In this document: positions 15,152 to 38,980 of the stretch, piece by piece
How positions within the stretch are numbered: position 1 is the stretch's first letter
Layout: each line of letters opens with the position of its first letter
NCBI RefSeq assembly: GCF_004118265.1
Contig: NZ_SDHW01000003.1
Location: 1-64,000 of the forward strand
Reading direction: 5' to 3'
DNA length: 64,000 nucleotides
From: Lacibacter luteus
Lineage (GTDB): Bacteria > Bacteroidota > Bacteroidia > Chitinophagales > Chitinophagaceae
Program-made: the position numbers and the translations under genes
The notes under the pieces: generated by a model
What the model was told of the DNA's origin: nothing
Databases searched by the model: none
Seen by the model: the letters and a program-made list of their open reading frames with translations, nothing else

Positions 15152-15525
15152 ATAAACAATCTTGCGTTAAAGATAGCTGATTAAAATCTTACTTACTAAA
15201 CGGCCTTGTGATGATTTTGTATAACCGATTGTTAATCATTAAAAAGCAAAATACAGACAGCACAGGACAGTTGCGGAAAAATGGCATCGTTCTCGGGAAC
15301 GATTGCGTAAATAAACCCCTTTACAAGCCTTTAGGATTCGTTAAAAACAGAGTAGACTTGTTTTGTTAAACGAACGGATTTGCTTGTGTTGAACGTAGTT
15401 CAGAAGATGCTTTTACAACGGCCATTAAATAGTTAACGATTCAAAACAATCACCAAAACATTCAACTTTTTTATTGCATCCCCTTGCAGTAAAAGTCTAT
15501 TGATTATTTTAAAACTAAACACAGT
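15152..15525. other. Divergent control region between the LacI-type gene and susC
   Basis: This 374-base region holds the promoter of the SusC operon and of the regulator. The LacI-like operator is at 15293-15308. Other suggestive words are GATTGTTAATC (15228-15238) and CGTT...AACG pairs around 15339-15375. No clear TAnnTTTG box could be fixed for either direction, and there is no reading frame worth reporting. Confidence 0.6.
15292..15320. promoter_or_regulatory. LacI-type operator in the susC control region
   Basis: TCGGGAACGATTGCGT (15293-15308) is a 16-bp pseudo-palindrome with a C-G centre; it matches the PurR consensus ACGCAAACGTTTGCGT at 12 of 16 positions. The surrounding 29 bases recur at 38885-38913 with one difference. 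It sits between the LacI-type gene and susC, about 220 bases before the susC ATG. Confidence 0.7.
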
Positions 15526-18500
15526 ATGAAACAGTTTTTCTCTCTGTTTTTGCTTTGCATGTGTTGTACGATTGCATTTGCCCAAAACCGCCAGATAAAA
15601 GGAAAGGTTACGGACGAAACCGGTGCCGGTTTAGCAGGTGTAAGTGTATTGCTGAGTGGAGCCAACAACGGTGTGCAAACAGATGCCAATGGTAATTTTT
15701 CTATTACTGCGCCGGGTACAGGTGCTGTAACATTAACCATCAGTTATTCGGGTTACAAACAACAAACAGTTAAAACCGATGGCAAATCGGAACTAAACAT
15801 CAGTCTTGAAAAAGATGTTACAGCATTAGAAGATGTGGTGGTAATTGGTTATGGAACAATTAAACGTAAAGATCTTACGGGTACTGTTTCATCAATTGGT
15901 GCGAATGAATTATCAAAGATCCCGGTTTCAAGTGCAGCCGAAGCAATTACGGGTCGCTTACCTGGTGTACAGGTAACATCTGTTGATGGTGCACCCGGTG
16001 CTGAAATCGTCATTCGTGTACGTGGTGGTGGTTCGGTTACACAGGATAACTCGCCGCTTTATATTGTTGATGGTTTTCCTGTTAACAACATTAATGATAT
16101 TGCCCCCTCCGATATTGCGAGCATCGACATCTTGAAAGATGCGGCTACAACAGCGATCTACGGTGCACGTGGTGCGAACGGTGTTGTTATTATTTCTACC
16201 AAAAATGCAAAGGCGGGTAAAACAACGATTACGTTTAACTCGTTTGGTACTGCACGCACTTTACCCCGCCAGCTCGAAGTTTTATCGCCTTACGAATTTG
16301 TATTGGCCAACTATGAGTATGCACGTTTGCAAAACCAAACAACAGTTGATGGTTTCACCAAATACTTTGGTGCTTATGAAGATCTTGAATTGTATAAATA
16401 TCAGAAGGGTACCAACTGGCAAAAGGAGTTATTTGGTAAGCCGGTGTATTCGCAACAACATAATCTTGGTATTACAGGGGGTACTGCTAAAACAAAATTC
16501 AGTTTAAGTGCAACCAACAATACCGATCAGGGTTTAATGCAGGGATCGGGCTACCAACGCAACTACCTCAACTTTAAATTAAACCATGAAGTTGCAAAGA
16601 ATTTAAAGCTCGACTATTCCTCCCGTTTTGTACATACTGTAACTGATGGTGCAGGTTCATCCGGTTCATCGAATTTCCGTATTGGAGATGCCATCACTAC
16701 ACGCCCTGTAAATGGTATTGCCGATTTTATCCAGATCGATCCAAATCCGGGTGGTACAGATGATGATTACGAACAGTTCCTGAAGAGTCTCATCAGCCCA
16801 ACCCAACTGCTTGCACAGGATTACCGTAAGCGTGTGGCACATACATTAAATATGAATGCTGCTGCAACATGGAACATCATTCCAAGTCTTATCTATCGCA
16901 CAGAGTTTGGTATGGATCTTACATTCGGTCAGCTGAAGCGTTATTACGGTCCGTTAACTTCTGTTTCACGTAACGAAGGAAGTAATTTGCCAATGGGCGA
17001 AATTACAAACTCCAATGCACGTAGCTTCCGTTGGGCAAATACACTTACATATAAAAAAGAAATTGGTAAGCACGATTTTACTGTGCTTGGCGGACAGGAG
17101 ATCAATATCCTCAACAAAGGATTTTCTGAATATACACGTGCAAAACTGTTTGTTGAAAATACAAGCCCTGAACGCATGTTTGCCAATATGCAATTGGGTA
17201 CAACAGACAGACATACAACCAATATTGCAGCCGGACAAAAACTTGCTTCTTTCTTCGGACGTATCAACTATCAATACGATTCACGTTACCTGCTTACGCT
17301 TACACTTCGTGCAGATGCCTCAACCAAATTTTCGCCAGAAAAACAATGGGGCTACTTTCCTGCTGCTGCGTTTGCATGGCGTGTGTCGAGAGAAAACTTC
17401 ATGAGCAATATTAAGTGGATTGATGATCTGAAATTCCGCATCAGCTACGGTGCTGCAGGTAACGACCGCATTGCCGATAATATCTGGCGTGTACTCTTCC
17501 AGGCAAGTGATAACAGAACAATTGGGTTTGGTGATGTTGCCAACCCTTATTATACCTACGCAACAAGCTCATTGCCCAACCCGTTTGTACAATGGGAAAC
17601 AAATATTACCCGTAACACAGGTCTTGATTTTACATTGTTTAAACAACGCTTAACCGGTGCGTTAGATTTTTACTGGAACAGTGCAAAAAATCTGCTGGTA
17701 TTAACAGATATTCCGCAAAACACAGGTTTCAGTACACAGCAACAAAACATCGGTCAAACATCAAACAAAGGTGTTGAGCTTGGTTTAAATGCTTCAATTA
17801 TTCAAAAAAGAGATTTTCAACTGAATGCTACATTCAACATTGGTTTCAATAAAGCAAAAATTGACAACCTTGGCGGCCCTTCAGAAAAATCATTGCAATC
17901 GAACTGGGCAAGTACCGATCTGAAACAACAGGACGATTACCGTGTTTATGTTGGACAAACAATTGGTTTAATGTATGGCTATGTAACAGATGGCTGGTAC
18001 ACAGCAGACGATTTTGCATCGTATAACCCAATTACAAGAACATATACACTTAAAGCAGGTGTACCAACTGTTGGTTCTTTACTGGGTGGTGTAATTGGTG
18101 TGCGCCCCGGTACAATGAAGTTGAAAGACCTCGACAGCAATGGTGTTATCAACGCTTCCGATCGTAAAGTAATTGGCAGTGCCTTACCAAAATACTCAGG
18201 TGGTTTTGGTTTAAGTGCTACCATTAAAAACTTCGACATCAGTGCATACTTCAATTTTGTTGTAGGTAACGATGTGTACAACACAGGTAAAATTTCATTC
18301 AACCAGTTTTACCGTACCAACTATGGCAACATGCTGAATACTGTTAATTCTGATAACCGTTATAAATACATTGATGCATCAGGTAACCTTGTAACAGATC
18401 TTACAGAATTGAGCAAGTTAAATGCAAATGCAAAAATCTGGTCGCCATTTTCATTTGGTAATGCTACACCTGTGTTTCATTCATGGGCTGTGGAAAATGG

Positions 18501-18753
18501 ATCGTTCCTTCGTTTAAATACATTAACGGTTGGGTACTCATTACCAAAACGTATTACATCGGTTGTACACATGACCAAAGTGCGTGTATATGCAACTGTT
18601 TACAACGCATTCCTCTGGACAAAATATTCCGGTTACGATCCTGAAGTGAGTTCTACAAGAAGCGATGGCTATTCACAATTAACTCCCGGTGTTGATTATT
18701 CGGCCTATCCTAAGAGCCGCAACTTTACAGCGGGTATTAACGTAACATTTTAA
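15526..18753 (+). CDS. susC: SusC/RagA-type TonB-dependent outer-membrane transporter
   Basis: This is a 1075-residue importer for pectin-derived oligosaccharides. It has a signal peptide (residues 1-20, ending A-F-A-Q), then a carboxypeptidase-regulatory-like domain (about 24-100, I-K-G-K-V-T-D-E-T-G). The TonB-box region L-E-D-V-V-V-I-G-Y-G-T follows, then the plug (about 115-230, I-Y-G-A-R-G-A-N-G-V-V-I-I-S-T-K) and the beta barrel to the C-terminal phenylalanine. It heads block 1 and is followed 10 bases later by SusD. The LacI-type operator upstream implies repression without substrate. Assignment of pectin as substrate comes from the neighbours, not from the protein itself. Confidence 0.95.
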   Translation: MKQFFSLFLLCMCCTIAFAQNRQIKGKVTDETGAGLAGVSVLLSGANNGVQTDANGNFSITAPGTGAVTLTISYSGYKQQTVKTDGKSELNISLEKDVTALEDVVVIGYGTIKRKDLTGTVSSIGANELSKIPVSSAAEAITGRLPGVQVTSVDGAPGAEIVIRVRGGGSVTQDNSPLYIVDGFPVNNINDIAPSDIASIDILKDAATTAIYGARGANGVVIISTKNAKAGKTTITFNSFGTARTLPRQLEVLSPYEFVLANYEYARLQNQTTVDGFTKYFGAYEDLELYKYQKGTNWQKELFGKPVYSQQHNLGITGGTAKTKFSLSATNNTDQGLMQGSGYQRNYLNFKLNHEVAKNLKLDYSSRFVHTVTDGAGSSGSSNFRIGDAITTRPVNGIADFIQIDPNPGGTDDDYEQFLKSLISPTQLLAQDYRKRVAHTLNMNAAATWNIIPSLIYRTEFGMDLTFGQLKRYYGPLTSVSRNEGSNLPMGEITNSNARSFRWANTLTYKKEIGKHDFTVLGGQEINILNKGFSEYTRAKLFVENTSPERMFANMQLGTTDRHTTNIAAGQKLASFFGRINYQYDSRYLLTLTLRADASTKFSPEKQWGYFPAAAFAWRVSRENFMSNIKWIDDLKFRISYGAAGNDRIADNIWRVLFQASDNRTIGFGDVANPYYTYATSSLPNPFVQWETNITRNTGLDFTLFKQRLTGALDFYWNSAKNLLVLTDIPQNTGFSTQQQNIGQTSNKGVELGLNASIIQKRDFQLNATFNIGFNKAKIDNLGGPSEKSLQSNWASTDLKQQDDYRVYVGQTIGLMYGYVTDGWYTADDFASYNPITRTYTLKAGVPTVGSLLGGVIGVRPGTMKLKDLDSNGVINASDRKVIGSALPKYSGGFGLSATIKNFDISAYFNFVVGNDVYNTGKISFNQFYRTNYGNMLNTVNSDNRYKYIDASGNLVTDLTELSKLNANAKIWSPFSFGNATPVFHSWAVENGSFLRLNTLTVGYSLPKRITSVVHMTKVRVYATVYNAFLWTKYSGYDPEVSSTRSDGYSQLTPGVDYSAYPKSRNFTAGINVTF

Positions 18754-18763
18754 AGCAATTGCC

Positions 18764-20593
18764 ATGAAAAAAATATATTTCATTTTATTATTAATAGCAA
18801 TTACTTCGCTGCAGTCGTGCAAGAAGTTTTTAACGGCCGATTCGCCTTCGTTAACCGATCTTGAGTATGTATTTAATACAGAAGCCGATGCAAAAAAAGC
18901 GGTGAATTCGGTTTATGCATTGTTTAATCAGGATGCATTTACTTCACGTCTTTCCAATAATTTTTCGGGCAACTCCGATATTGAATGTGGTGGTGTTTCT
19001 GCATCGCCCGATAACTCACGCCGTGACATTTGGTCGTTTGAATGTACACCTGCCAATGGCGATTTGTTAACAGTATGGAACAATGGTTACAATGCCATTA
19101 ACCGTGCCAACGAATGTGAAAAGGGTTTGAAAGAAGTATCGTTGGTAAAAGATCCTACGAACAAAGTATTTAATAACCTGCTTGGCGAAACAAGAGCATT
19201 GCGTGCTCTTTGGTTTTATTGGTTAATGAATCACTGGGGTGATGTTCCGTTTAAAACAACTCCTTCACGTGCGGGTGATAATTTTTATTTAGGAAGAACA
19301 GGAAGAGATACCATACTTACATTCCTGATCAATGATCTGATTGAAATAGAACCCAAAATGTCGTGGGCAGATGAACTTGATTTTGGTATCGAGCGCATCA
19401 ACCGTGAGTTTGTAATTGGAATGATAGCACGTTTATCGTTAATGCGTGGTGGTTACTGGTTATATCCTGATAAAACCATGAAGCGTAAAGACGATTATTT
19501 GAAGTATTACGAGATAGCAAATACATATACGAAGAAACTGATGGATCTGAAGCCCCGTGCTCTTCCTGATTATGCAACTGTTTTCCAAAACGTAAACAAA
19601 TACATCAAACCATTAAACAGCGATGTGTTGTACGAAGTAGCGTTTCATCCCGGTTTTGGTGATGTGGGTTGGAACCATGGTATAAGAGTAGATGCAGGTA
19701 CACATCCATACGGTTCGGGTTCAAACTATTTGTCTTTGCCCATCACGTATTATCACTCGTTCGATACAACTGACAAACGCTTACCGGTTTCCTGTTTTCT
19801 TGTTTATTACGATAAAGATCTTATTCAGCAACCTGCAGGTGCAACTTCTGTTGCTCCGGGTAAATGGAACAGGTTATTGGTGCCAACACCACTGGGAGCA
19901 TCTACTGCAAAGGGTACAGGCATTAACTGGCCGTTGATGCGCTATTCCGACATTTTATTAATGTTTGCTGAAAGTGAAAACGAATTGAACGGACCAACTG
20001 CCGCTGCACAAAATGCGTTGCGTTTGGTACGTCAGCGTGCATTTTCTGAAAGCTTGTGGAGCGATAAAGTAACTGCTTACATTACTACTGCAGCTGCAGG
20101 CAAGCAAACTTTCTTCGATGCTATTGTAAACGAGCGTGCATGGGAATTTGGCGGTGAATGTTTACGCAAATATGATCTTGCCCGTTGGAACCTCTATGGG
20201 AAAAAAGTAGCAGATGCAAGAAATGCATTGATTCAAATGGGTATTGATGGTACCACAAACACAGGTACATATGCCAACTTACCAGACTATATGTATTATA
20301 AGAAAAGTGCCAACGGTGTAATTACCTGGTTAAACTTATACAGAAGACCGGCAGTGGAACCTCCTGTAAAAGATGTGCCTACAGTTGGCAGTAACCCCGA
20401 TGGTTATACACGTATTGCATGGACCAGATCGATGTACAACACAACTACCAGCGGCCCGGCAAACTTTCCGCTTTGGACCTGGAGAGGTTATTCCGATTAT
20501 ACAGGTGCTACAGCTGTACGTTATATTTTGCCTTTACATAGTTCGGTTGTAACAAGCAGCCTTGGTGCACTGCAAAATCAATATGGGTACTAA
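18764..20593 (+). CDS. susD: SusD/RagB-type glycan-binding lipoprotein
   Basis: This is a 609-residue surface lipoprotein. The lipobox L-Q-S-C places the acylated cysteine at residue 19. The N-terminal TPR-like helical part (about 35-290) has the W-N-N-G-Y-N-A-I-N-R-A-N and T-R-A-L-R-A-L-W-F-Y-W-L patterns. The C-terminal SusD part has R-Y-S-D-I-L-L-M-F-A-E-S-E-N, L-R-L-V-R-Q-R-A and I-V-N-E-R-A-W-E-F-G-G-E. It caps SusC and captures the oligosaccharide. It is cotranscribed with susC and with the next lipoprotein gene. Confidence 0.95.
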   Translation: MKKIYFILLLIAITSLQSCKKFLTADSPSLTDLEYVFNTEADAKKAVNSVYALFNQDAFTSRLSNNFSGNSDIECGGVSASPDNSRRDIWSFECTPANGDLLTVWNNGYNAINRANECEKGLKEVSLVKDPTNKVFNNLLGETRALRALWFYWLMNHWGDVPFKTTPSRAGDNFYLGRTGRDTILTFLINDLIEIEPKMSWADELDFGIERINREFVIGMIARLSLMRGGYWLYPDKTMKRKDDYLKYYEIANTYTKKLMDLKPRALPDYATVFQNVNKYIKPLNSDVLYEVAFHPGFGDVGWNHGIRVDAGTHPYGSGSNYLSLPITYYHSFDTTDKRLPVSCFLVYYDKDLIQQPAGATSVAPGKWNRLLVPTPLGASTAKGTGINWPLMRYSDILLMFAESENELNGPTAAAQNALRLVRQRAFSESLWSDKVTAYITTAAAGKQTFFDAIVNERAWEFGGECLRKYDLARWNLYGKKVADARNALIQMGIDGTTNTGTYANLPDYMYYKKSANGVITWLNLYRRPAVEPPVKDVPTVGSNPDGYTRIAWTRSMYNTTTSGPANFPLWTWRGYSDYTGATAVRYILPLHSSVVTSSLGALQNQYGY

Positions 20594-20625
20594 TTAAACT
20601 GATTGGCCATTCTAAAAAAACAGCA

Positions 20626-22200
20626 ATGAAAAAATTACTTTTTATATCACTGGCTGCAACATTGGTATTCATCGCTTGTAAAAAAGTGGAAGACCTTGGT
20701 GAAGCGCCACGTTTATTCCGACCTGTTATTAAAGATGCCTTGCTGTCGGAAGGTAACTGGATAAAGGTATCGTGGCAGCCCATTAAAGGTGCAGCATCGT
20801 ACACAGCAGAAATAAGTGTAGATAGTTTTAAAACAGTTGCAGGAAGAATAACAACTGATACCAATGTGCATGTGTTTGAAAATCTTTATTGGGAAAAATT
20901 ATACCAGGTAAGGGTGAAAGCAGTTGCAGCAGATACATCGCACAACTCGAAGTTTGCCGATCTGGGTGCAATTAAAACAGCACGTTTTCCTACCATCTTA
21001 AACATACCGTCTCTCAGCGAAGTAAATGATAACTCAGTAAAAGTTAGCTGGACAACAAGTGGAGCAGCAGTAACAGAAGTAAAGATCTTACTTGCTGCCG
21101 ATAGTTCTGTTGTAAAAACTGCAACCATGAATGGTACCGATGTAGCAAACGCCTACAAACTTGTTTCCGGGTTGAATGCATCAACTGCTTATATCATTTT
21201 TCTGTATAGTGGTACAACAGTTCGTGGTTGGGCAAACTTTACAACCAAGGCAGCCTTAACGGGTGCGTTAATTGATCTTCGCAATATTACCGGTGTGCCA
21301 AGTTTGTTAATTGATACCATTCCTGATATTGCATCGGGTAGTATTATCTTACTGAAACGTGGTGAAACTTATAATATCAGTACATCCCTCAGCCTTAATA
21401 AAACGCTCACCTTTATGGCAGGCGATGATTTGTTGAACCCGGCAAAACCAATCATCTTAATGCCATCAAATTTCAATATTGCATCAGGTGCAGTAATTGA
21501 CTCTATCGTATTTAATGATGTGGTGTTGCGTGGTACTGATTATGCATCGAAATATGTATTCAATATCAATGCTGCCTGTACCATTGGCAAAATACGTTTT
21601 GAAAACTGCGTTGCAGAAATTTTCAGAGGTGTACTTCGTGCCCAAAGTCAGCCGGTTATTATCACAAATCTGGAAATGAATAATTGCATTGTTGACAGCA
21701 TTTCTAATTACGGAGTATTTAATATTGATGTAGCAACAAGCCGTGCGGACTATATTAAAATAACGAACAGTACTATTTATAAAGCAGAAAAAGTTATCAC
21801 AAGTCGTAACAACTCCATTGCTGTTTTAGTAGAAAACTGTACGTTCAACGAGGCACCTGCAGGTAACAGCTCTTCATATTATATCGATTACAGTACGTCC
21901 GGTACCAATAACGTAACAAACGGTATTACTGTAAATAATTGCATTTTTGGAATTGGAAAAAACAGTTCGGGTGCATACACTGTACGAGATGTGCGTGCAA
22001 ATGCGGCTACAATAATCAATACAAGTAATAACTTTCGTACTTCCGATCATTTGTCGGCAGGTAATGATTTTCCGAGTATCACAACGTTAGGAATATCTGC
22101 AGCACAATTATGGCAAGACCCTGCTGCGGGCAATTTCAAAATAATTAATACTTCCTTCACCGGCAGAAGTAACTCAGGTGATCCACGCTGGAGATTGTAA
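20626..22200 (+). CDS. Surface lipoprotein with FN3 and DUF4957/DUF5123 domains
   Basis: This is a 524-residue lipoprotein with lipobox V-F-I-A-C (cysteine 18). Two fibronectin-III-like domains (about 30-112 and 118-212) are followed by a DUF4957-like segment (about 215-360) and a DUF5123-like right-handed beta-helix (about 360-515) rich in N-N-C-I, F-x-N-C and I-x-N-S-T turns. This arrangement is common as the third gene after susCD in pectin loci, where it is thought to bind homogalacturonan or related glycans at the surface. Catalysis is not excluded, but no active site is obvious. A strong terminator follows. Confidence 0.8.
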   Translation: MKKLLFISLAATLVFIACKKVEDLGEAPRLFRPVIKDALLSEGNWIKVSWQPIKGAASYTAEISVDSFKTVAGRITTDTNVHVFENLYWEKLYQVRVKAVAADTSHNSKFADLGAIKTARFPTILNIPSLSEVNDNSVKVSWTTSGAAVTEVKILLAADSSVVKTATMNGTDVANAYKLVSGLNASTAYIIFLYSGTTVRGWANFTTKAALTGALIDLRNITGVPSLLIDTIPDIASGSIILLKRGETYNISTSLSLNKTLTFMAGDDLLNPAKPIILMPSNFNIASGAVIDSIVFNDVVLRGTDYASKYVFNINAACTIGKIRFENCVAEIFRGVLRAQSQPVIITNLEMNNCIVDSISNYGVFNIDVATSRADYIKITNSTIYKAEKVITSRNNSIAVLVENCTFNEAPAGNSSSYYIDYSTSGTNNVTNGITVNNCIFGIGKNSSGAYTVRDVRANAATIINTSNNFRTSDHLSAGNDFPSITTLGISAAQLWQDPAAGNFKIINTSFTGRSNSGDPRWRL

Positions 22201-22221
22201 GCATCATTGAAGAAAAACCAT

Positions 22222-22251
22222 AAAACGCCGCAGCAATTGTTGCGGCGTTTT
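22222..22251 (+). terminator. Terminator ending the susCD operon
   Basis: AAAACGCCGCA (22222-22232) pairs perfectly with TGCGGCGTTTT (22241-22251) around an 8-base loop. This 11-bp stem ending in a T-run separates block 1 from the lyase block. Confidence 0.88.
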
Positions 22252-22282
22252 CCCCAAAATCTGTTGTTAACGAAAATGCTGC

Positions 22283-22299
22283 CGGTATGATTAATACCG
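22283..22299. promoter_or_regulatory. Inverted repeat before the pectate lyase operon
   Basis: CGGTAT and ATACCG flank GATTA, 47 bases before the ATG at 22346 and just after the terminator. It is a candidate operator for block 2. It is unlike the LacI-type sites of blocks 1 and 3. Confidence 0.35.
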
Positions 22300-22345
22300 A
22301 TAAGAATGTTATTGTAAAAATTGATTCAACAGAAAGACGCAGTTA

Positions 22346-23770: not shown

Positions 23771-23771
23771 C

Positions 23772-24515: not shown

Positions 24516-24525
24516 CTACTGCCAA

Positions 24526-30132: not shown

Positions 30133-30137
30133 TTGGT

Positions 30138-31157: not shown

Positions 31158-31181
31158 GGAAAAGACAACGGGCAAATAAAA

Positions 31182-32105
31182 ATGAAAAAGTCATTTTACA
31201 TAGCATGTTTTTTACTGTTGAATTTGTTTGCAAAAGCGCAGGAGTTTATTCCCTTGTGGCCTGCAGGAAAAATGCCCAACTACAATGGCAAAAAAGTAAC
31301 CGACAGTTTGTTCAACGAGCGCATTTGGCGTGTGGCAACACCGGGCATGTATAGCTTTCTTGTTCCGAAAGCTGAGAACAAAGGCACAGCCATTCTCATT
31401 GTTCCCGGTGGTGGTTACGAACGCTTATCATATATCTATAACGGATTCAATTTTGCAAAGTGGTACAACAGCATTGGTGTAAATGTATTTGTGCTCATTC
31501 ATCGTTTGCCGCATCAGCAGGATCTTATCAATAAACAAATTGGTCCGGTGCAGGATGCACAACGGGCCATGCGTATCATTCGTGCAAATGCTGCACTATG
31601 GAATATCAAAACAGATAAAATTGGTGTGATGGGTGTTAGTGCCGGTGGTCATGTGGCAAGCACACTTGGTACACATGCAAAAGATGAAAGTACTATCAAT
31701 GATTCATTAACGGCTCACAGTTTTCGTCCCGATTTTATGGTACTGCTCTCTCCTGTTATAACAATGGGTGAATTTGCACATCCCGGCAGCAAGAAAAATT
31801 TTCTGGGTGCAGATACAACGAAGGCCAATATCCAGAATTATTCTGGTGAATTGCAGGTGAGTTCCTTCACACCTCCAACATTTTTGGTGCATGCACAAAA
31901 CGATAGTACTGTGAAGGCGCAGAACAGTGTATTGTTTTACAATGAATTACTCAATAAAAAGATCAATGCAAGTCTGCATATCTTTCCACAAGGTGGACAT
32001 GGAATACGATTGGATGACAATCCCGGATCAACCGATCAGTGGATGAATTTGCTGGAAGCGTGGTTAAAAGAAATGAATTTTATCATCCCTATTCCGTTTA
32101 AATAA
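31182..32105 (+). CDS. Secreted alpha/beta-hydrolase esterase (first copy)
   Basis: This is a 307-residue alpha/beta hydrolase with a signal peptide (about 1-19, ending A-K-A-Q). The oxyanion loop V-P-G-G-G-Y, nucleophile elbow G-V-S-A-G-G-H, acid H-A-Q-N-D-S-T and base G-G-H-G-I-R form a full triad. It resembles acetyl esterases of the bifunctional BD-FAE/Axe type and is paralogous to the gene at 33423. In a pectin locus the likely job is removing acetyl groups from galacturonate or side-chain sugars. The exact ester is unknown. Confidence 0.85.
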   Translation: MKKSFYIACFLLLNLFAKAQEFIPLWPAGKMPNYNGKKVTDSLFNERIWRVATPGMYSFLVPKAENKGTAILIVPGGGYERLSYIYNGFNFAKWYNSIGVNVFVLIHRLPHQQDLINKQIGPVQDAQRAMRIIRANAALWNIKTDKIGVMGVSAGGHVASTLGTHAKDESTINDSLTAHSFRPDFMVLLSPVITMGEFAHPGSKKNFLGADTTKANIQNYSGELQVSSFTPPTFLVHAQNDSTVKAQNSVLFYNELLNKKINASLHIFPQGGHGIRLDDNPGSTDQWMNLLEAWLKEMNFIIPIPFK

Positions 32106-32106
32106 A

Positions 32107-33405
32107 ATGCATACACACAAGATCATATTCATTTGCTTGCTTGGATTAGCACCACTTGCATTGGTTGCACAAAAACCTGTGCCGGTGAAGCCACGCATTC
32201 TTATCAGTACAGATATTGGTGGCACCGATCCCGACGATAATCAATCGATCACACATTTTCTCATGTACAGTCACCTGTTTCAAACAGAAGGATTAATTTC
32301 TTCACCTTCTTACGGACAAGGAAACAAACGGGAATTATTACGCATGATCGATCTGTATGAAAAAGATCTTCCTCTTTTACAAAAACATCAACAAGGATAT
32401 CCTTCGCCTGCTTCATTAAAAGCAGTTTGCAAACAAGGAAGATTAGGCGCTGCTCCGTTTAAAGGATATTCAACTGCTACCGAAGGATCAGATTGGATCA
32501 TTAAGTGCGCAAAGAAGAAAAGCACACAACCACTTTGGATACTTGTGTGGGGTGGATTAGAAGATGTAGCACAAGCCTTGCATGATGCACCGGAAATTCA
32601 AACCAACATTAAAGTGTATTGGATCGGTGGACCAAACAAAAAATGGAGCGCCAACAGCTATGCATACATTGTTGCAAATTTTCCCAACCTCTGGTTTATA
32701 GAAACCAACAGTTCATACTATGGCTTCTTTTCTGATAATGTGCCGGATAGTTTGCATAACAAAAACTATTATGATCGTTTTATTAAAGCTGCGGGATTTT
32801 TAGGGAAAGACTTCAAACAATATTATAAAGGAAACATCAAGATGGGCGATACACCTTCTTTACTTTACATGATGGATGGTGATCCAAATGATGCATCTAA
32901 AGAAAGTTGGGGAGGCAGTTTTGAAAAATTTACACATAGTCCGAGAATTGTATTTAGCCGCAACACAACACTTGCAGATACGGTTACAGTCTATTCGGTG
33001 ATTGAATTACATTTCAAAGGACCCGTTATTAATATCCCTGCTGATTCAAGTTGCTTTACCATGAGTGTGAAAGCCAAGATCGGTGAACAAAAATGGGCCG
33101 GTTATTATTTAGGCAATGGCGATTATGCAGTAAGATATTGTCCCAAACAAACAGAAACGATAACTTACAACATCACATCAGATGTGAAAGGTTTTGCAGA
33201 GCAAAGCGGACAATTTGTAGTGGATAATATTTGGCCGGGCAAACCCCGTTCAACCGATTATCAATTAGGCGCAAACTGGTTCACTGATCGTGGTAATCCT
33301 GAACTTTTTGATGAGATCTATCAAGGAGGGCAAACAGTATTGAAATGGAGAACTGAAATTTTATTAGATTGGGCAAAGCGTTGGTCGTGGCTACAGGAAA
33401 ATTAA
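32107..33405 (+). CDS. DUF1593 / nucleoside-hydrolase-like secreted protein
   Basis: This is a 432-residue protein with a signal peptide (about 1-21). The N-terminal domain (about 30-290) begins I-L-I-S-T-D-I-G-G-T-D-P-D-D-N-Q-S, the calcium-binding aspartate motif of the nucleoside-hydrolase fold as seen in DUF1593 proteins, and later W-I-L-V-W-G-G-L-E-D-V-A-Q-A-L. The C-terminal part (about 300-430) is a beta domain. DUF1593 proteins occur in many plant-glycan loci, and some were first noted as cellulose-binding (Sde182). Their pectin-related reaction is not established. It starts one base after the previous stop. Confidence 0.75.
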   Translation: MHTHKIIFICLLGLAPLALVAQKPVPVKPRILISTDIGGTDPDDNQSITHFLMYSHLFQTEGLISSPSYGQGNKRELLRMIDLYEKDLPLLQKHQQGYPSPASLKAVCKQGRLGAAPFKGYSTATEGSDWIIKCAKKKSTQPLWILVWGGLEDVAQALHDAPEIQTNIKVYWIGGPNKKWSANSYAYIVANFPNLWFIETNSSYYGFFSDNVPDSLHNKNYYDRFIKAAGFLGKDFKQYYKGNIKMGDTPSLLYMMDGDPNDASKESWGGSFEKFTHSPRIVFSRNTTLADTVTVYSVIELHFKGPVINIPADSSCFTMSVKAKIGEQKWAGYYLGNGDYAVRYCPKQTETITYNITSDVKGFAEQSGQFVVDNIWPGKPRSTDYQLGANWFTDRGNPELFDEIYQGGQTVLKWRTEILLDWAKRWSWLQEN

Positions 33406-33422
33406 ACCGTTAAAAATATTTT

Positions 33423-34319
33423 ATGAAGAAACTGATTTTATTGATGGCAATTTTTACAGGCTTAAAAACGTATGCGCAAACAGAAATGCCTTTGTATACT
33501 GCTGCGGTTCCCAATTCAAAACCCGCACCGAATAAAGAAAAAGCAGAAACAAGGGACAATGTTACACGCATTTCAAAAGTGAGTGTTCCAACCCTTACCG
33601 TTTACAAACCTGCAAACCCGAATGGTATGTCGGTGATCATTTGCCCAGGCGGTGGTTATGGTATTTTAGCATTTGATAAAGAAGGAACACGTGTTGCAGA
33701 AGAAATGAACAAGTGGGGCATCACTGCATTTGTGTTGAAATACCGTTTGCCTGATGATACAACCAATATCGATCGCAGCATTGCTCCGCTCATGGATGCA
33801 CAGCAAGCCATTCGTTTGGTGCGCAACAAAGCAACTGAATGGGGATTGAAAAAAGATAAGATAGGCATCATGGGTTTTTCAGCAGGCGGACATTTAGCTT
33901 CAACTGCTGCAACACATTTCAGCAGCAATGCAGATGTTACAAACAAAGACACAAGTTCTGTTCGTCCTGATTTTGCAGTGTTGATCTATCCTGTCATCAG
34001 TTTCGATAGTACCATTACACACAAAGGATCAAGAAATAATTTAGTGGGTGCAACTGCGTCGGCCGAACAAATCAAACTCTATTCAAACGAATTGCAGGTA
34101 ACAGCAAAAACGCCTCCCTCCTTTTTAGTGCATGCAGGCGATGATGGTTCTGTAGTTGTTGAGAACAGTATCCGTTATTACCAGGCTTGTATAAAATATA
34201 AAGTGTCTGTTGAAATGCATCTCTATCCAAAAGGCGGACATGGTTTTGCTATGTACAATAAAACAACAACTGATAATTGGATGGAGCGATTGAAAAATTG
34301 GTTAACAACATTGAACTAA
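33423..34319 (+). CDS. Secreted alpha/beta-hydrolase esterase (second copy)
   Basis: This is a 298-residue alpha/beta hydrolase with a signal peptide (about 1-18, ending T-Y-A-Q). The triad and oxyanion motifs are C-P-G-G-G-Y, G-F-S-A-G-G-H, H-A-G-D-D-G-S and G-G-H-G-F. The V-R-P-D-F-A-V-L-I-Y-P-V-I segment matches the paralogue at 31182. Two copies imply two ester positions or two substrates. It is typical of the BD-FAE/acetyl-xylan-esterase-like group found in pectin and xylan loci. It sits 17 bases after the DUF1593 gene. Confidence 0.86.
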   Translation: MKKLILLMAIFTGLKTYAQTEMPLYTAAVPNSKPAPNKEKAETRDNVTRISKVSVPTLTVYKPANPNGMSVIICPGGGYGILAFDKEGTRVAEEMNKWGITAFVLKYRLPDDTTNIDRSIAPLMDAQQAIRLVRNKATEWGLKKDKIGIMGFSAGGHLASTAATHFSSNADVTNKDTSSVRPDFAVLIYPVISFDSTITHKGSRNNLVGATASAEQIKLYSNELQVTAKTPPSFLVHAGDDGSVVVENSIRYYQACIKYKVSVEMHLYPKGGHGFAMYNKTTTDNWMERLKNWLTTLN

Positions 34320-34366
34320 CAATTGTGTTTTTGTTTGGTGTTACCTTGTAAGCAAAATAGAAACAG

Positions 34367-35410
34367 ATGCAACCGATCAATACAGCAATATGTTCTTTCG
34401 GCATGAGTGGATGGGTGTTTCATGCGCCGTTCATTACTGCGCATCCCGGCTTTAATTTTTATGGCGTGTGGGAACGAACAAAAAACCTGGCGCAGGAAAA
34501 ATATCCATCGGTAAAAACATTCCGCACACTGGAAGAAATGCTGGCTGATGAAAACATTGAATTAGTGGTCGTGAATACTCCCAATGTTACGCATTACGAT
34601 TATGTGAAGCAGGCATTGTTGGCGGGTAAACATGTGGTGTGTGAAAAACCATTTACTGTTGAAGTAAGTGAAGCAGAAGAGTTGATTGCATTAGCGGCTG
34701 AAAAAAATCTGAAGCTTTCTGTTTTCCAAAACAGAAGATACGACAGTGATTATAAAACCATCAAGTCTGTTCTCGATCAAAAGTTGTTAGGCAATATTGT
34801 AGAAGCAGAATTTCATTTCGATCGGTATAAAGAAGAGATCAGTCCCAAAGCACACAAAGAAGTACCAATGAAAGGCACAGGTGCCTTGTACGATCTTGGT
34901 TCGCATCTCATTGACCAGGCATTGCAGTTGTTTGGTAAACCAACAGCAGTGTTTGCTGATATCGCCATCATACGACCGGTATCGTTGGTAGATGATTATT
35001 TCGAGATACTCTTATACTATCCATCATCAAGAGTACGCATCAAAGGCAGTTACCAGGTACGTGAAGCATTACCCGGTTATGTGTTGCATGGCAGCAAGGG
35101 TTCGTTCATCAAGCCAAAGACAGATATGCAGGAAGCGCAACTGCAGGCCCATATGTTGCCAACCGATGTGGCTTATGGCATCGAACCTGAAAGTGAAAAT
35201 GGTTTGCTGCATACAGAGGCAGATGGAAAGATCATCAACGAAAAAATTCCTTCGCTAACAGGAAATTATACAGCGTATTACGAAGGCATTTATCAAGCCA
35301 TCCGTAACAATGCGCCTTTGCCTGTAACAGCAGAACAGGGAACAGATGTAATACGGATTATTGAAGCAGCATTTAAAAGTAACGACGAAAAAAGAGTGAT
35401 AACATTATGA
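34367..35410 (+). CDS. Gfo/Idh/MocA-family oxidoreductase (cytoplasmic)
   Basis: This is a 347-residue NAD(P)-dependent oxidoreductase. It has an N-terminal Rossmann fold, then V-V-N-T-P-N-V-T-H-Y-D and C-E-K-P-F-T-V (the E-K-P motif with the catalytic-site lysine, about 93-99). The C-terminal alpha/beta domain carries the G-A-L-Y-D-L-G-S-H-L-I-D-Q-A sequence with the usual active-site D/H pair. There is no signal peptide. It resembles YdgJ/YvaA-like sugar dehydrogenases. Its stop overlaps the GH43 start in ATGA. A role in converting a side-chain sugar is plausible, but the substrate is unknown. Confidence 0.88.
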   Translation: MQPINTAICSFGMSGWVFHAPFITAHPGFNFYGVWERTKNLAQEKYPSVKTFRTLEEMLADENIELVVVNTPNVTHYDYVKQALLAGKHVVCEKPFTVEVSEAEELIALAAEKNLKLSVFQNRRYDSDYKTIKSVLDQKLLGNIVEAEFHFDRYKEEISPKAHKEVPMKGTGALYDLGSHLIDQALQLFGKPTAVFADIAIIRPVSLVDDYFEILLYYPSSRVRIKGSYQVREALPGYVLHGSKGSFIKPKTDMQEAQLQAHMLPTDVAYGIEPESENGLLHTEADGKIINEKIPSLTGNYTAYYEGIYQAIRNNAPLPVTAEQGTDVIRIIEAAFKSNDEKRVITL

Positions 35411-37011
35411 AGTTAATAGCAGTAGTTGGGTTTGTATTGACAGGCATTTGTGCATCGGCACAAACAGTTTCGAATGTTTGGGTAAGCGATCAGAAAAATG
35501 GTACGTATAAAAATCCGGTAATAGATGCAGATTACAGCGATCCCGATGCTATTCGTGTAGGCGATGATTTTTATATGGTCTCTTCATCGTTCACACATAT
35601 TCCCGGCTTACCTATTCTTCATTCAAAAGATTTGGTGAATTGGAAATTGATCGGTCATGCATTGAAACGTCAGCCACCATTCGATCATTTTTCAACAGTG
35701 CAACATGGTGGTGGTGTGTGGGCTCCAGCGATCCGTTATTACAACAACGAATTTTATATCTATTATCCCGATCCTGACTTTGGCATTTATGTAACGAAAG
35801 CAAAAAATATCACAGGTCCATGGACAGAGCCTGTTCTTATTGAAACAGGAAAAGGTTTGATAGATCCTTGTCCGTTGTGGGATACTGATGGTAAAGTTTA
35901 TCTCGTACATGCATACGCTGGTAGTCGTGCAGGTTTCAAATCGATCATTGTTGTAAAAGAACTCAATAAAGAAGGAACAAAAGTGATTGGCGATCCGGTG
36001 TTGGTGTTCGATGGTCATGCAACAGATCCTACATTGGAAGGACCGAAGTTTTATAAACGCAATGGCTACTATTACATTTTTGCTCCGGCGGGTGGTGTTG
36101 CCACAGGTTGGCAATTAGTAATGCGTTCAAAAAATGTATATGGACCTTATGAACGTAAAGTGGTGATGGATCAAGGCTCATCGCCGGTAAATGGTCCGCA
36201 CCAAGGTGCATGGGTAAACACACAAACAGGTGAAGATTGGTTTTTGCATTTCCAGGATAAAGATGCGTATGGACGTGTGGTGCATCTGCAACCCATGACA
36301 TGGAAAAATGATTGGCCGGTGATTGGTATTGATAAAGACGGCGATGGAAAAGGTGAACCGGTAATGGTTTATAAAAAACCAAATGTTGGAAAAGCATATC
36401 CTGTTGCAACAGTTGCCGACAGCGATGAATTCAATACACCCAAACTTGGTTTGCAATGGCAGTGGCAGGCCAACCCGCAACAGGGCTGGGCATTTCCAAC
36501 TGCAGAAGGCGTGTTGCGTTTGTTCTCTGCGTTGTTGCCCGATAGTATTAAACTGGCATGGGATTATCCCAACCTGCTGGCACAAAAATTCCCGACAGAG
36601 GAATTTACAGCCACAACAAAAATCTCCTTTCAACCCAAACATGAAAAAGAACGTTTTGGCTTGATGATACATGGCGCCAGTTATGCATACATCTCTATAG
36701 AAAAAAGAGCCGATGGAAACTACATCAGCTTTGTGAAATGTGTGGATGCAGACAGGAAGGGAAAGGAAACAGTGCAGGATGGTGAAAAACTGAAGAGTAA
36801 GGATATTTATTTGCGTGTGCAGGTGCGTCAAAAAGCTGTTTGCACATTCAGTTACAGCGAAGATGGAACAAACTTTAAAACGATCGGTGAATCGCTAACT
36901 GCAAAACCCGGTCGTTGGGTGGGTGCAAAAATTGGTTTCTTCTTTAACCGCAGTAACAAGACAAACGATGCTGGTGTGGTGGATATTGATTGGTTCCGCA
37001 TCGAAAAATAA
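35407..37011 (+). CDS. Glycoside hydrolase family 43 (arabinan/xylan-side-chain type)
   Basis: This is a 534-residue enzyme with a signal peptide (about 1-19, ending A-S-A-Q). The GH43 five-blade propeller (about 35-320) shows the catalytic base in D-A-D-Y-S-D-P-D-A-I-R, the middle aspartate in I-D-P-C-P-L-W-D, and the acid in L-E-G-P-K-F-Y-K-R. A C-terminal beta-sandwich (about 340-530, F-G-L-M-I-H-G, F-F-F-N-R-S-N) matches the GH43 C2 concanavalin-like domain. It likely removes arabinose, xylose or galactose from pectin side chains. The 4-base ATGA overlap with the upstream oxidoreductase indicates translational coupling. Confidence 0.9.
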   Translation: MKLIAVVGFVLTGICASAQTVSNVWVSDQKNGTYKNPVIDADYSDPDAIRVGDDFYMVSSSFTHIPGLPILHSKDLVNWKLIGHALKRQPPFDHFSTVQHGGGVWAPAIRYYNNEFYIYYPDPDFGIYVTKAKNITGPWTEPVLIETGKGLIDPCPLWDTDGKVYLVHAYAGSRAGFKSIIVVKELNKEGTKVIGDPVLVFDGHATDPTLEGPKFYKRNGYYYIFAPAGGVATGWQLVMRSKNVYGPYERKVVMDQGSSPVNGPHQGAWVNTQTGEDWFLHFQDKDAYGRVVHLQPMTWKNDWPVIGIDKDGDGKGEPVMVYKKPNVGKAYPVATVADSDEFNTPKLGLQWQWQANPQQGWAFPTAEGVLRLFSALLPDSIKLAWDYPNLLAQKFPTEEFTATTKISFQPKHEKERFGLMIHGASYAYISIEKRADGNYISFVKCVDADRKGKETVQDGEKLKSKDIYLRVQVRQKAVCTFSYSEDGTNFKTIGESLTAKPGRWVGAKIGFFFNRSNKTNDAGVVDIDWFRIEK

Positions 37012-37037
37012 GGGTTCGTAAAAAATATAATTGCCAT

Positions 37038-38441
37038 ATGGAAAGAAGATCATTTGTAAAATACACTGCAGCAGCAGGCGCATCGCTTATGCTGCACCCG
37101 TTTACTTCAATCGCCTCATCAAAGCCCGGACAAAAAATAAAACTTGCACTTGTTGGTACAGGTTCACGTGGCAGCAGCCTCTGGGGTAAAACCATTCTCA
37201 CCGAATTTAAAGATGTGTGCGAATTTGTTGGCTTGTGCGATATCAATCCAGGCCGTGTGGCGTATGTAAAACAATACATGGGTGTAACCTGTCCTACTTT
37301 CACCAGCATTGATGCCATGTTGAAAGCGGTAAAAGCCGATTACATTATTGTAACAACAGTTGACGCTACACACGATGAAATGATTATAAAATCCCTCAAC
37401 GCAGGGTTTAATGTTATTACTGAAAAACCAATGACAACCGACGAAGATAAATGTCGGAAGATCTTAGAAGCAGAGAAGAAAACCGGAAAAAAAGTAACTG
37501 TTGCTTTTAACTATCGCCACAGTGTACACGCTATGCAGTTGAAAGAATTGCTGGCAGCTAATCGTGTTGGAAAGATCACTTCTGTTGATTTTAATTGGTA
37601 CCTCAATGTGCATCACGGAGCCGATTATTTCCGTCGCTGGCATGGCCGTATGAACAAAGGCGGCTCCTTATGGGTGCATAAGGCAACACATCATTTCGAT
37701 CTGCTCAACTGGTGGCTTAACAGTGAACCGGTTGAAGTAAGTGCTTATGGTTCATTGGAACATTATGGAAAGAACAATGAGTTCCGTGGTACAAAATGCC
37801 GTGGTTGTGAACACAAACCCAATTGCAAATTCTATTGGGACATTACCAGCAACAAACAAAATGTAAATCTCTATGTAAACAACGAACAGCACGATGGTTA
37901 TATCCGTGATGGTTGTGTGTGGAGCAATGAGATCGACATTTTTGATAAGATGAGTGCACAGATCATTTATGCAAATGGCGTAACGGTTAACTATTCACTC
38001 ACAACTTATTCCCCTTATGAAGGCTGGCAGATTGCTTTCAATGGTAAGAAGGGACGCATTGAAACATGGGAAGACATTCCTTACCTGCAAAAAACAAAGG
38101 TGGATGAAGAGAAACGTCATGCTATTGAAATGAGCAATGCCGATGATGCTATTGCAGGTGAAGCAAATGAAATACTTGCCTGGGATAATTTCGGTAAAGA
38201 TTTTGAAGTGTACACCACAGCAAAGATCCGTGGCGGGCATGGTGGTGGCGATATTCGTATGCAACGCAGAATGTTTACCAACACCAACGACAATCCACAC
38301 CATGTAATGGCCGGAACAAGAGAAGGCGCCATGAGCATACTCATTGGTATTGCTGCAAGAAAGAGCATTGCCTTAAAACGTCCGGTAAAAATTTCTGAAT
38401 TAACCGATCTTGTGCCCAAAGCAAACAGACACGAAGTATGA
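37038..38441 (+). CDS. Exported Gfo/Idh/MocA-family oxidoreductase with cysteine cluster
   Basis: This is a 467-residue protein. The N-terminus M-E-R-R-S-F-V-K-Y-T-A-A-A-G-A-S is a twin-arginine-like signal, as in many Bacteroidota exported members that fold with NAD in the cytoplasm. The Rossmann part has V-G-T-G-S-R-G-S-S and T-E-K-P-M-T-T (about 122-128). The C-terminal part contains C-R-G-C-E-H-K-P-N-C (about 255-264), a cysteine cluster known from GH109-like or related exported members. The ATG at 37038 is preferred: the frame extends to a TTG inside the GH43 gene. Substrate is unknown. Confidence 0.87.
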   Translation: MERRSFVKYTAAAGASLMLHPFTSIASSKPGQKIKLALVGTGSRGSSLWGKTILTEFKDVCEFVGLCDINPGRVAYVKQYMGVTCPTFTSIDAMLKAVKADYIIVTTVDATHDEMIIKSLNAGFNVITEKPMTTDEDKCRKILEAEKKTGKKVTVAFNYRHSVHAMQLKELLAANRVGKITSVDFNWYLNVHHGADYFRRWHGRMNKGGSLWVHKATHHFDLLNWWLNSEPVEVSAYGSLEHYGKNNEFRGTKCRGCEHKPNCKFYWDITSNKQNVNLYVNNEQHDGYIRDGCVWSNEIDIFDKMSAQIIYANGVTVNYSLTTYSPYEGWQIAFNGKKGRIETWEDIPYLQKTKVDEEKRHAIEMSNADDAIAGEANEILAWDNFGKDFEVYTTAKIRGGHGGGDIRMQRRMFTNTNDNPHHVMAGTREGAMSILIGIAARKSIALKRPVKISELTDLVPKANRHEV

Positions 38442-38872
38442 AACAGTTAATCCTATCAGTATTACTAACAATTGTTCTTGGTTTTAACAGTATAGCGCAA
38501 TCAAAGCAAGAAACAGCAGTTGCTAATGCAGTTGAAAAACTCCGCCTGGCAATGATCAGTGGTAACGAAGCTGAGTTGCGTGCTGTTACAAGTGATAAAC
38601 TCAGCTACGGACATTCAGGAGGTTTGGTCGAAAACCAAGAGCAGTTTCTTGAAAAATTCAAAACCGGTGCTTCCGATTTTGTAACCATTGAGCTAAAGAA
38701 TCAAACCATTTCTGTCAGTGGAAAAGTGGCTATTGTCCGTCATGAACTACACGGCACCAACAATGATAATAACAAACCCGGCGAAGTGCATTTACGCATT
38801 TTGCTGGTGTTTGAAAAGAGCGGCAAAGAATGGAAAATGCTTGCCCGGCAGGCGGTTAAAATTACACCGTAA
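38438..38872 (+). CDS. Secreted NTF2-like (DUF4440/SnoaL-type) protein
   Basis: This is a 144-residue protein with a signal peptide (about 1-21, ending S-I-A-Q). The mature region fits a nuclear-transport-factor-2 cone fold: the helix A-V-E-K-L-R-L-A-M-I-S-G-N, then L-S-Y-G-H-S-G-G-L-V-E-N-Q-E-Q-F-L, and the closing strands L-R-I-L-L-V-F-E-K-S and W-K-M-L-A-R-Q-A. Such proteins occur beside sugar oxidoreductases, but no reaction is assigned. The start overlaps the previous stop by four bases. It closes block 2. Confidence 0.82.
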   Translation: MKQLILSVLLTIVLGFNSIAQSKQETAVANAVEKLRLAMISGNEAELRAVTSDKLSYGHSGGLVENQEQFLEKFKTGASDFVTIELKNQTISVSGKVAIVRHELHGTNNDNNKPGEVHLRILLVFEKSGKEWKMLARQAVKITP

Positions 38873-38884
38873 ATAACCCGTTTG

Positions 38885-38913
38885 CTCGGTAACGATTGCG
38901 TAAATAAACCCCT
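38885..38913. promoter_or_regulatory. LacI-type operator before the GH28 operon
   Basis: TCGGTAACGATTGCGT (38886-38901) differs by one base from the operator near susC, and the identity continues over 29 bases in all. It begins 13 bases after the NTF2-like stop and ends 67 bases before the ATG of the GH28 gene. A CCCCTC/GAGGGG hairpin (38909-38923) abuts it. Confidence 0.7.
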
Positions 38914-38980
38914 CCCCGAGGGGACATAACCTTGTCTATCAAGGTTAACTTGTGGCCTGTTTCAAAAACAACGAACAAGT

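What the first reader, a model, noticed from the sequence alone, without database searches (positions are those of the whole stretch)
15292..38913. Twin 29-bp LacI/PurR-like operators define a local pectin regulon
Seen: 15292-15320 and 38885-38913 are identical except at one base, and each contains a C-G-centred pseudo-palindrome (TCGGGAACGATTGCGT in copy 1) that matches the PurR box at 12 of 16 positions. One lies in the divergent region between a LacI-type regulator and susC, the other directly before the GH28-to-exuT operon 23 kb away. Known: LacI-family regulators use such sites. Inferred: this regulator controls import and uronate catabolism together, while block 2 may rely on read-through or another signal.
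Basis: partly seen in the sequence, partly recalled or inferred. Interest (0 to 1): 0.75.

Follow-up and report, generated by a model that had tools for sequence, protein, structure and literature searches.

The report
Pectin regulon with fixed operator-promoter spacing
The two near-identical DNA sites look like binding sites of a sugar-type regulator that links pectin breakdown genes across a bacterial family, and their rigid distance to an unusual promoter suggests that the regulator works by touching RNA polymerase, probably to switch genes on.

Summary
Observation confirmed: the 29-mers at 15292-15320 and 38885-38913 differ at one base (0 of 100 shuffles; only two in the 5.07 Mb genome). 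The conserved unit is CGGnAACGWTTGCGTAAAWAAA, a CG-centred LacI-type operator plus A-tract. It lies within 500 bp upstream of the divergent lacI in 89 of 101 ortholog loci, reading away from lacI in 87, two ties. Over 195 family genomes it tracks the lacI ortholog (74 both, 10 motif only, 9 lacI only, 102 neither). The regulon is not local: other sites lie before an altronate-dehydratase-type gene, a GH88/susC locus and PEPCK. The twin lacI-susC/GH28 layout recurs in 10 of 34 relatives. New: in 111 of 182 non-redundant sites a -7 box starts 57-59 bp from the operator start (shuffles: mean 1, maximum 4), and it is TAGAMTTG, not the TAnnTTTG of other promoters in the same loci. The operator centre thus lies about 63 bp upstream of the inferred start site, a geometry for contact with RNA polymerase. 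I favour activation; GalR-like contact repression is the main rival. There are no binding or expression data. New variant of LacI-family control.

The parts
14120..15151 (-). LacI-family regulator (343 aa), divergent from susC
   Evidence: Pfam PF00356 HTH, Peripla_BP_1/3; ortholog in 83 of 195 family genomes, own included, at E<=1e-105
15282..15295 (+). upstream overlapping operator-like site TGGCATCGTTCTCG, sharing its last CG with the main operator
   Evidence: TGnnATCGTT at 0.7 to 1.5 bits per fixed position in 89 aligned ortholog sites
15294..15307 (+). main LacI-type operator, copy 1 (CGGGAACGATTGCG)
15308..15315 (+). conserved TAAATAAA flank on the promoter side
   Evidence: 1.7 to 2 bits per position except the variable W (0.93), whose search pattern ended at the first A
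15353..15360 (+). predicted -7 box TAGACTTG of the susC promoter, 59 bp from operator start
   Evidence: position class of 111 of 182 sites
15526..18753 (+). susC (TonB-dependent receptor), first gene of the import and degradation run
   Evidence: Pfam plug and carboxypeptidase-regulatory domains
18764..38872 (+). rest of the first run: susD, DUF5123/DUF4957/fn3 protein, GDSL, pectinesterase, BD-FAE esterases, GFO/IDH/MocA, GH43, DUF4440 and others; the 1868-aa protein at 24526-30132 was not scanned
   Evidence: Pfam; no further match to the 17-base core at up to 3 mismatches
38887..38900 (+). LacI-type operator, copy 2 (CGGTAACGATTGCG)
   Evidence: a site before the GH28 homolog in 10 relatives
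38901..38908 (+). TAAATAAA flank, copy 2
38945..38952 (+). -7-like box TTAACTTG, 58 bp from operator start (one mismatch to TAnnHTTG); a rival TAACCTTG lies at 38927 (offset 40)
38981..40633 (+). GH28 (polygalacturonase-type) hydrolase
   Evidence: Pfam PF00295
40753..53241 (+). GH88/105, pectinesterase, UxaB-type dehydrogenase, UxaC, KduD-type SDR, KduI, two PfkB kinases, YhcH, KDPG aldolase, MFS transporter
   Evidence: Pfam; functional names beyond the Pfam family are inference

Best explanation
The two sites are operators of the LacI-family protein encoded at 14120-15151, the regulator of a pectin and galacturonate regulon found across much of Chitinophagaceae. A dimer binds CGGnAACG/WTTGCG. 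The operator centre sits about 63 bp upstream of the inferred start of transcription, on a fixed spacing to a distinctive, off-consensus -7 box (TAGAMTTG), with the A-tract flank (about -55 to -49) between. From there it contacts RNA polymerase and most likely activates these weak promoters when a pectin-derived uronate or its breakdown product is present. In the window this couples oligosaccharide import (susC run) to uronate catabolism (GH28-to-MFS run); in trans the same factor probably reaches an altronate-dehydratase-type gene (uxaA), the pathway step that I did not find in the window. Shown: sites, conservation, co-occurrence, neighbouring genes, spacing, promoter deviation. Inferred: that this LacI binds them, the start site, the sign of control, the effector, the contact with the alpha subunit.
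For: Footprint: 89 of 101 ortholog loci carry the site within 500 bp upstream of lacI; searched on both strands, 87 read away from lacI, 2 tie, 0 read toward it, 12 have none. 39 of 39 lacI-adjacent sites among the 139 family sites that I copied also read away. Co-occurrence 74/10/9/102, Fisher p 4e-32, not corrected for kinship; the reversed pattern has 1 hit in 195 genomes. Mostly confined to the family: 6 of 9 family genomes against 2 of 386 others in the class. Genes after the sites: susC types, GH28, UxaC, UxaB, KduD, KdgK-type kinase, KDPG aldolase, PME, GH88/105, AraC/uxaA, pectate lyases. Fixed spacing: 94 boxes at +58, 16 at +59, 1 at +57, no other offset above 2, in 182 sites deduplicated at 70% identity; 111 of 182 against a mean of 0.96 and a maximum of 4 in 200 single-base shuffles; 38 promoters with spacers under 50% identical still keep +58. 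Mirror control: toward lacI no offset holds more than one box, 68 sequences. Off-consensus -7: T at -8 in 3 of 112 boxes against 53 of 120 such boxes in 399 non-regulon upstream regions. Precedents: GalR at -60.5 contact-activates gal P2 (PMC4693257 passages); CcpA activates from cre sites upstream of -35, helix-face dependent (PMC3463425 passages). CcpA entries are among the top PDB matches of this protein (ranks 2-5 of 56, the last two under the name glucose-resistance amylase regulator; rank 1 is a LacI-family regulator without a further name).
Against: No expression, binding or start-site data. 71 of 182 sites lack a strict box at +57 to +59, including most of the mixed 'other' class (37 of 56). 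In the own genome the GH88/susC, fasciclin and PEPCK sites lack it, and the uxaA region has only a one-mismatch TTTTATTG at +58 with the operator in the opposite orientation. Copy 2 has only a one-mismatch box and a rival at offset 40. Helical phasing of the exceptions was not significant (p 0.08). GalR at nearly the same position represses P1, so geometry alone does not give the sign. Nine LacI genes share the genome, and related sites lie beside paralogues. Nine genomes have the ortholog without the motif and ten the motif without the ortholog. susC matches alone do not prove a pectin substrate.
Confidence: 0.62

Rival explanations
1. Contact repressor: the LacI protein sits at the same place and touches RNA polymerase but holds it back, as GalR does at gal P1, and a uronate releases it.
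For: GalR at -60.5 represses P1 from the same DNA face (PMC4693257 passages); most sugar-responsive LacI proteins are repressors (recalled). Fixed spacing fits any RNA polymerase contact.
Against: The promoters deviate systematically from the usual -7 consensus, which suits a promoter needing help rather than one needing restraint.
Confidence: 0.2
2. Another DNA-binding protein (a second LacI paralogue, the AraC protein beside uxaA, or an unknown factor) uses the 22-mer, and the neighbouring lacI is incidental.
For: Nine LacI genes in the genome; related sites lie beside paralogues (lacI_L045, the lacI beside MIOX); 10 genomes have the motif without the ortholog, several of them incomplete or fragmented assemblies.
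Against: The site sits beside this lacI clade in 89 of 101 loci and the co-occurrence is strong; no core within one mismatch lies in the upstream region of the uxaA-side LacI.
Confidence: 0.1
3. Operator and promoter form one module read by an alternative sigma factor; TAGAMTTG is its -7 element and the LacI protein only tunes it.
For: The box is a tight, different consensus (TAGAMTTGT with AATATCTG upstream), not a random weakening; sigma-70 region 2/4 (ECF-type) genes follow some sites.
Against: No second strong upstream element was seen; only weak T at +35 to +37, and a -33 element is also faint in F. johnsoniae (PMC6847099 passages).
Confidence: 0.08

Closest known systems
Bacteroides LacI-family uronate regulators KdgR (BT0487), UxaR (BT0824), UxuR (BT1434), UxmR (BT3613) (PMC3878776 section 10 and passages; PMC4052901 passages)
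   Same: LacI family, Bacteroidota, hexuronate catabolism, predicted by comparative genomics
   Different: There the rhamnogalacturonan loci are assigned to HTCS regulators, and only a limited number of periplasmic or extracellular genes fall under KdgR and UxmR; here one motif covers SusC, pectinases and uronate enzymes. I could not compare motifs or orthology with them.
GalR at gal OE (PMC4693257 passages)
   Same: LacI-family dimer centred at -60.5, contacts RNA polymerase, activates one promoter
   Different: One operon; represses the overlapping P1 from the same site; -35/-10 promoter elements
CcpA activation from upstream cre sites (PMC3463425 passages)
   Same: LacI family; sites upstream of -35 activate; helix-face dependent; close by PDB sequence search
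   Different: Catabolite control by CcpA with HPr-Ser-P; few activated genes; no single fixed spacing in the passages that I saw
AraQ and MalR1 of Bifidobacterium (PMC6882875, search listing only)
   Same: LacI-type regulators of carbon metabolism; that AraQ can also activate is recalled
   Different: Another phylum; text not read
PurR
   Same: CGnnAACGTTnnCG operator grammar (box recalled)
   Different: Repressor of purine genes (recalled); no purine genes seen among annotated neighbours here

Membership tests
LacI/GalR family regulator | N-terminal LacI HTH plus periplasmic-binding-protein-like core | tested here: met
   Pfam above cut-off; PDB relatives CcpA, PurR, LacI
LacI/GalR family operator | even palindrome of about 16 bp with central CG | tested here: met
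   CG at +6/+7 in 89 of 89 aligned sites (the search pattern held CG but allowed 2 mismatches). Only pseudo-palindromic: the two halves differ consistently.
PurR regulon | operators before purine genes | tested here: not met
   no purine gene among the annotated downstream genes, though the reference set held pectin, uronate and LacI neighbours only; 29 of 182 were unmatched
Local LacI regulon | confined to the neighbouring operon | tested here: not met
   unlinked sites in the own genome and in relatives
Class I-type activator promoter | operator at a fixed distance upstream of the promoter, near -61.5 or a turn further (recalled) | tested here: met
   111 of 182 at +57 to +59; the further-turn part was not significant
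Class I-type activator promoter | transcription depends on the regulator and on the alpha C-terminal domain | not testable with these tools
   no expression data
Bacteroidota primary sigma promoter (TTTG/TAnnTTTG) | -7 element TAnnTTTG with T at -8 and G rare at -10 | tested here: not met
   T at -8 in 3 of 112, G at -10 in 76 of 112, against the consensus in PMC6847099 passages
Bacteroides KdgR/UxaR orthologous group | orthology and shared motif | not tested
   their sequences and motifs were not obtained

The most novel reading that the evidence does not exclude
A dedicated LacI-family activator, with inverted logic (active with its uronate effector), has built a family-wide regulon around a private promoter class: operator, A-tract, and a TAGAMTTG -7 box on a spacing held to about one base pair across dozens of diverged promoters, so that regulator and core promoter have evolved as one unit.
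Probability: 0.5. Interest if true: 0.75.

Novelty: new variant of a known kind. Interest (0 to 1): 0.6.

Why it matters
LacI proteins are textbook repressors, and pectin loci of Bacteroidota are usually credited to HTCS or sigma/anti-sigma control (recalled; HTCS for B. thetaiotaomicron also in PMC3878776 passages). A rigid operator-promoter geometry in a motif carried by 54 of the 101 sampled genera of the family would give a directly testable case of a LacI protein acting through RNA polymerase contact, a promoter grammar for predicting its targets in environmental pectin degraders, and a natural test of what an off-consensus -7 box does under the unusual Bacteroidota sigma factor.

Tried and rejected
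Chance duplicate or dispersed repeat: rejected, the 29-mer occurs only twice in the genome and the core is conserved upstream of orthologous genes. Local two-site regulon: rejected. The -33 TTG lying inside the operator's TTGCG, which would make it a promoter-blocking site: considered from the sequence, dropped when the -7 box was found at +58. A fixed promoter on the lacI side: tested, none. Helical phasing of the exceptions at plus or minus one turn: tested, p 0.08, not claimed. Looping between the uxaA-side sites (114 and 115 bp apart): noted only; the third site has 2 mismatches. The A-tract as specific to this regulator: not so, the sites at both MIOX loci carry TAAATAAA as well. No report of a LacI protein with this fixed promoter geometry appeared in the listings (open-licence papers only; I read few of them); two searches returned no paper.

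Papers: PMC3878776 passages and one section; PMC4052901, PMC3463425, PMC12125979, PMC6847099, PMC4693257 passages only; PMC6882875 and the rest only as search listings. Recalled, from no call: the PurR box letters, CRP at -61.5, that most LacI proteins repress, what AraQ does.

Full report
What is there. The two 29-mers are present as described and differ at one base. Up to 3 mismatches gives two matches in the window, none in 100 shuffles, and no third copy in the 5,067,509-base genome. The window genome belongs to Lacibacter or a near relative: the nearest named ortholog of the regulator is from Lacibacter cauensis at 97% (lineage). This is an inference from one gene.

Gene context. The first site lies between lacI (14120-15151, minus) and susC (15526); the second lies between a DUF4440 gene and GH28 (38981). 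The run from GH28 to the MFS gene holds GH88/105, pectinesterase, mannitol-dehydrogenase-type UxaB, UxaC, KduD-type SDR, KduI, two PfkB kinases, YhcH, KDPG aldolase and MFS families. No altronate dehydratase family was found among the 30 window proteins scanned there; a gene with those domains (PF04295, PF20629; altronate or galactarate dehydratase, called uxaA here by inference) is on another contig.

Conservation. For 101 loci encoding orthologs (21, 80; some genomes appear in both) the site was found within 500 bp upstream of lacI in 89: 60 with no mismatch, 25 with one, 4 with two. On both strands, 87 read away from lacI, 2 tie (both from one 82%-identical ortholog), none reads toward it. 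Of the 12 misses, L148 has four bases of upstream sequence, L103 and L132 have the site at 1189 and 580 bp with a -7 box at +58, L067 has one 1.9 kb away, and in eight I found none. The aligned sites show CGGnAACGWTTGCGTAAAWAAA, close to 2 bits at most positions. The A-tract beyond its first base was not part of the search pattern, so its conservation there is not built in. A second block, TGnnATCGTT, lies 12 bp upstream at 0.7 to 1.5 bits per fixed position; with the main site it makes a ladder of CG (or TG) steps 6 bp apart, two operators sharing one half. By a relaxed count it is present in 34 of 55 lacI-adjacent sites, 15 of 28 GH28, 15 of 43 other susC and 10 of 56 other sites. Copy 2 in the window lacks it in register (sequence).

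Regulon. Own genome, core with no mismatch: five sites, none inside an ORF of 100 aa or more: the two in the window, one between an AraC gene and uxaA (C11), one between GH88 and another susC (C11), one between aminopeptidase P and PEPCK (C25). In 35 genomes (own plus 34 relatives) the core with two more bases of tail was found in 16 at up to one mismatch. The twin layout, a lacI-adjacent site and a GH28 site on one contig 14 to 34 kb apart, is present in 10 of the 34 relatives: G001, G002, G006, G007, G009, G010, G011, G013, G016, G017. Over 195 family genomes 84 have the 22-mer with at most one mismatch, against one hit of the reversed pattern; 83 have the ortholog; the overlap is 74, with 10 motif only and 9 ortholog only. 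The p value of 4e-32 ignores kinship. In 395 genomes of the class, 6 of 9 family members and 2 of 386 others have it.

Genes after the sites. Of 182 deduplicated sites, 55 were taken as lacI-adjacent (divergent gene not checked one by one), 43 stand before susC-type genes, 28 before GH28, 29 had no gene or no match in my reference set, and the other 27 fall on UxaC (5), GH88/105 (4), AraC beside uxaA (3), PME (3), UxaB (2), KduD (2), a KdgK-type kinase, KDPG aldolase and other window genes (per-site list). The reference set was made of genes of the own genome near LacI and pectin loci, so it favours such names. Ten of the 22 unmatched downstream proteins were scanned in Pfam: six are pectate-lyase-type (two PF00544, one PF03211, three Pel9A-like), two have sigma-70 regions 2 and 4, one is an aldehyde dehydrogenase, one had no match.

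Promoter geometry. On the 182 sites (deduplicated at 70% identity over 160 bp) the information profile has a second peak 58 bp from the operator start, TAGAMTTGT. By the expression TAnnHTTG, 94 start at +58, 16 at +59, one at +57; no other offset has more than two. In total 111 of 182 have one at +57 to +59; 200 single-base shuffles give 0.96 on average and at most 4. In a two-fold cross-validation the best-scoring window falls at +58 in 95 and at +59 in 16 of 182. By class: lacI-adjacent 43 of 55, GH28 21 of 28, other susC 28 of 43, others 19 of 56. The spacer is close to random (mean pairwise identity 0.31, 0.26 expected from composition), and 38 promoters with spacers under 50% identical keep exactly +58. 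Read toward lacI from the same operators, 68 sequences give 13 boxes and never two at one offset. In Flavobacterium johnsoniae the first T of the -7 element is at -12 (PMC6847099 passages); on that convention the operator centre is at about -63.5 and the A-tract at about -55 to -49. In the window copy 1 has TAGACTTG at +59 and copy 2 TTAACTTG at +58.

The -7 box is unusual. In 399 non-regulon upstream regions of the named loci TAnnTTTG is the only clear excess (53, against 29 in shuffles and 24 on the other strand; TAnnATTG 36 against 30). In the regulon, T at -8 occurs in 3 of 112 boxes, C or A in 108, and G at -10 in 76 of 112, a base reported as virtually absent there in F. johnsoniae.

Mechanism. 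A fixed spacing that survives sequence turnover means that the bound protein touches something positioned by the promoter, most simply RNA polymerase. A promoter kept off-consensus in one particular way fits dependence on that contact. LacI-family precedents exist for both signs at this position: GalR at -60.5 activates gal P2 and inhibits P1 by contact, and CcpA activates from upstream cre sites. I therefore put activation ahead of contact repression, roughly three to one. An activator that serves catabolic genes should work with its effector bound, the reverse of LacI itself; that is a prediction, and no effector was tested. The DNA-binding part is the most conserved part of the protein (mean majority frequency 0.92 in residues 1-60, 0.73 in the rest, 102 sequences), as expected if one operator sequence is held across the family.

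Limits. All evidence is sequence. 71 of 182 sites have no strict box at the place, and the own-genome GH88/susC, fasciclin and PEPCK sites lack it, while the uxaA region has only a one-mismatch TTTTATTG at +58 with the operator reversed; these may be controlled differently, use a weaker box, or not be targets. Family genomes are unevenly related. Part of the site set was selected with the A-tract or its start in the pattern; the -7 box was in no pattern by which sites were found.

Noticed in passing
L050:7904 and L046:7401 (own genome C27 and C23): Two myo-inositol oxygenase/susC loci carry CGAAAACGRTTTCGTAAATAAA, one beside its own LacI gene: apparently a sister regulon with other half-sites but the same A-tract flank.
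   Followed up: partly
L042:8626, 8740, 8855 (own genome C11:374624-374868): Three operator-like sites 114 and 115 bp apart between an AraC gene and uxaA, about eleven helical turns each; the two GalR operators of gal lie 113 bp apart. The third site has two mismatches.
   Followed up: no
L024:1501 (C21:421336), L313, L316: Genes with sigma-70 regions 2 and 4 (ECF-type) follow the operator in several genomes, in the own genome with TACACTTG at +59.
   Followed up: partly
window 15282-15315: CG/TG steps every 6 bp make two overlapping operators sharing a half; two canonical dimers could hardly fill both at once (inference).
   Followed up: partly
L273, L275: Sites of the form CGGAAACGTTTCCGTAAAAAAA lie beside relatives (47% and 50% identical) of the uxaA-side LacI, suggesting a dialect for that paralogue.
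   Followed up: no
L048:6635: CGCAATCGTTTGCGTACAATAA with TACACTTG at +69, eleven bases further than the main class, reading toward the 3' end of an arginase-family gene; no clear target.
   Followed up: no
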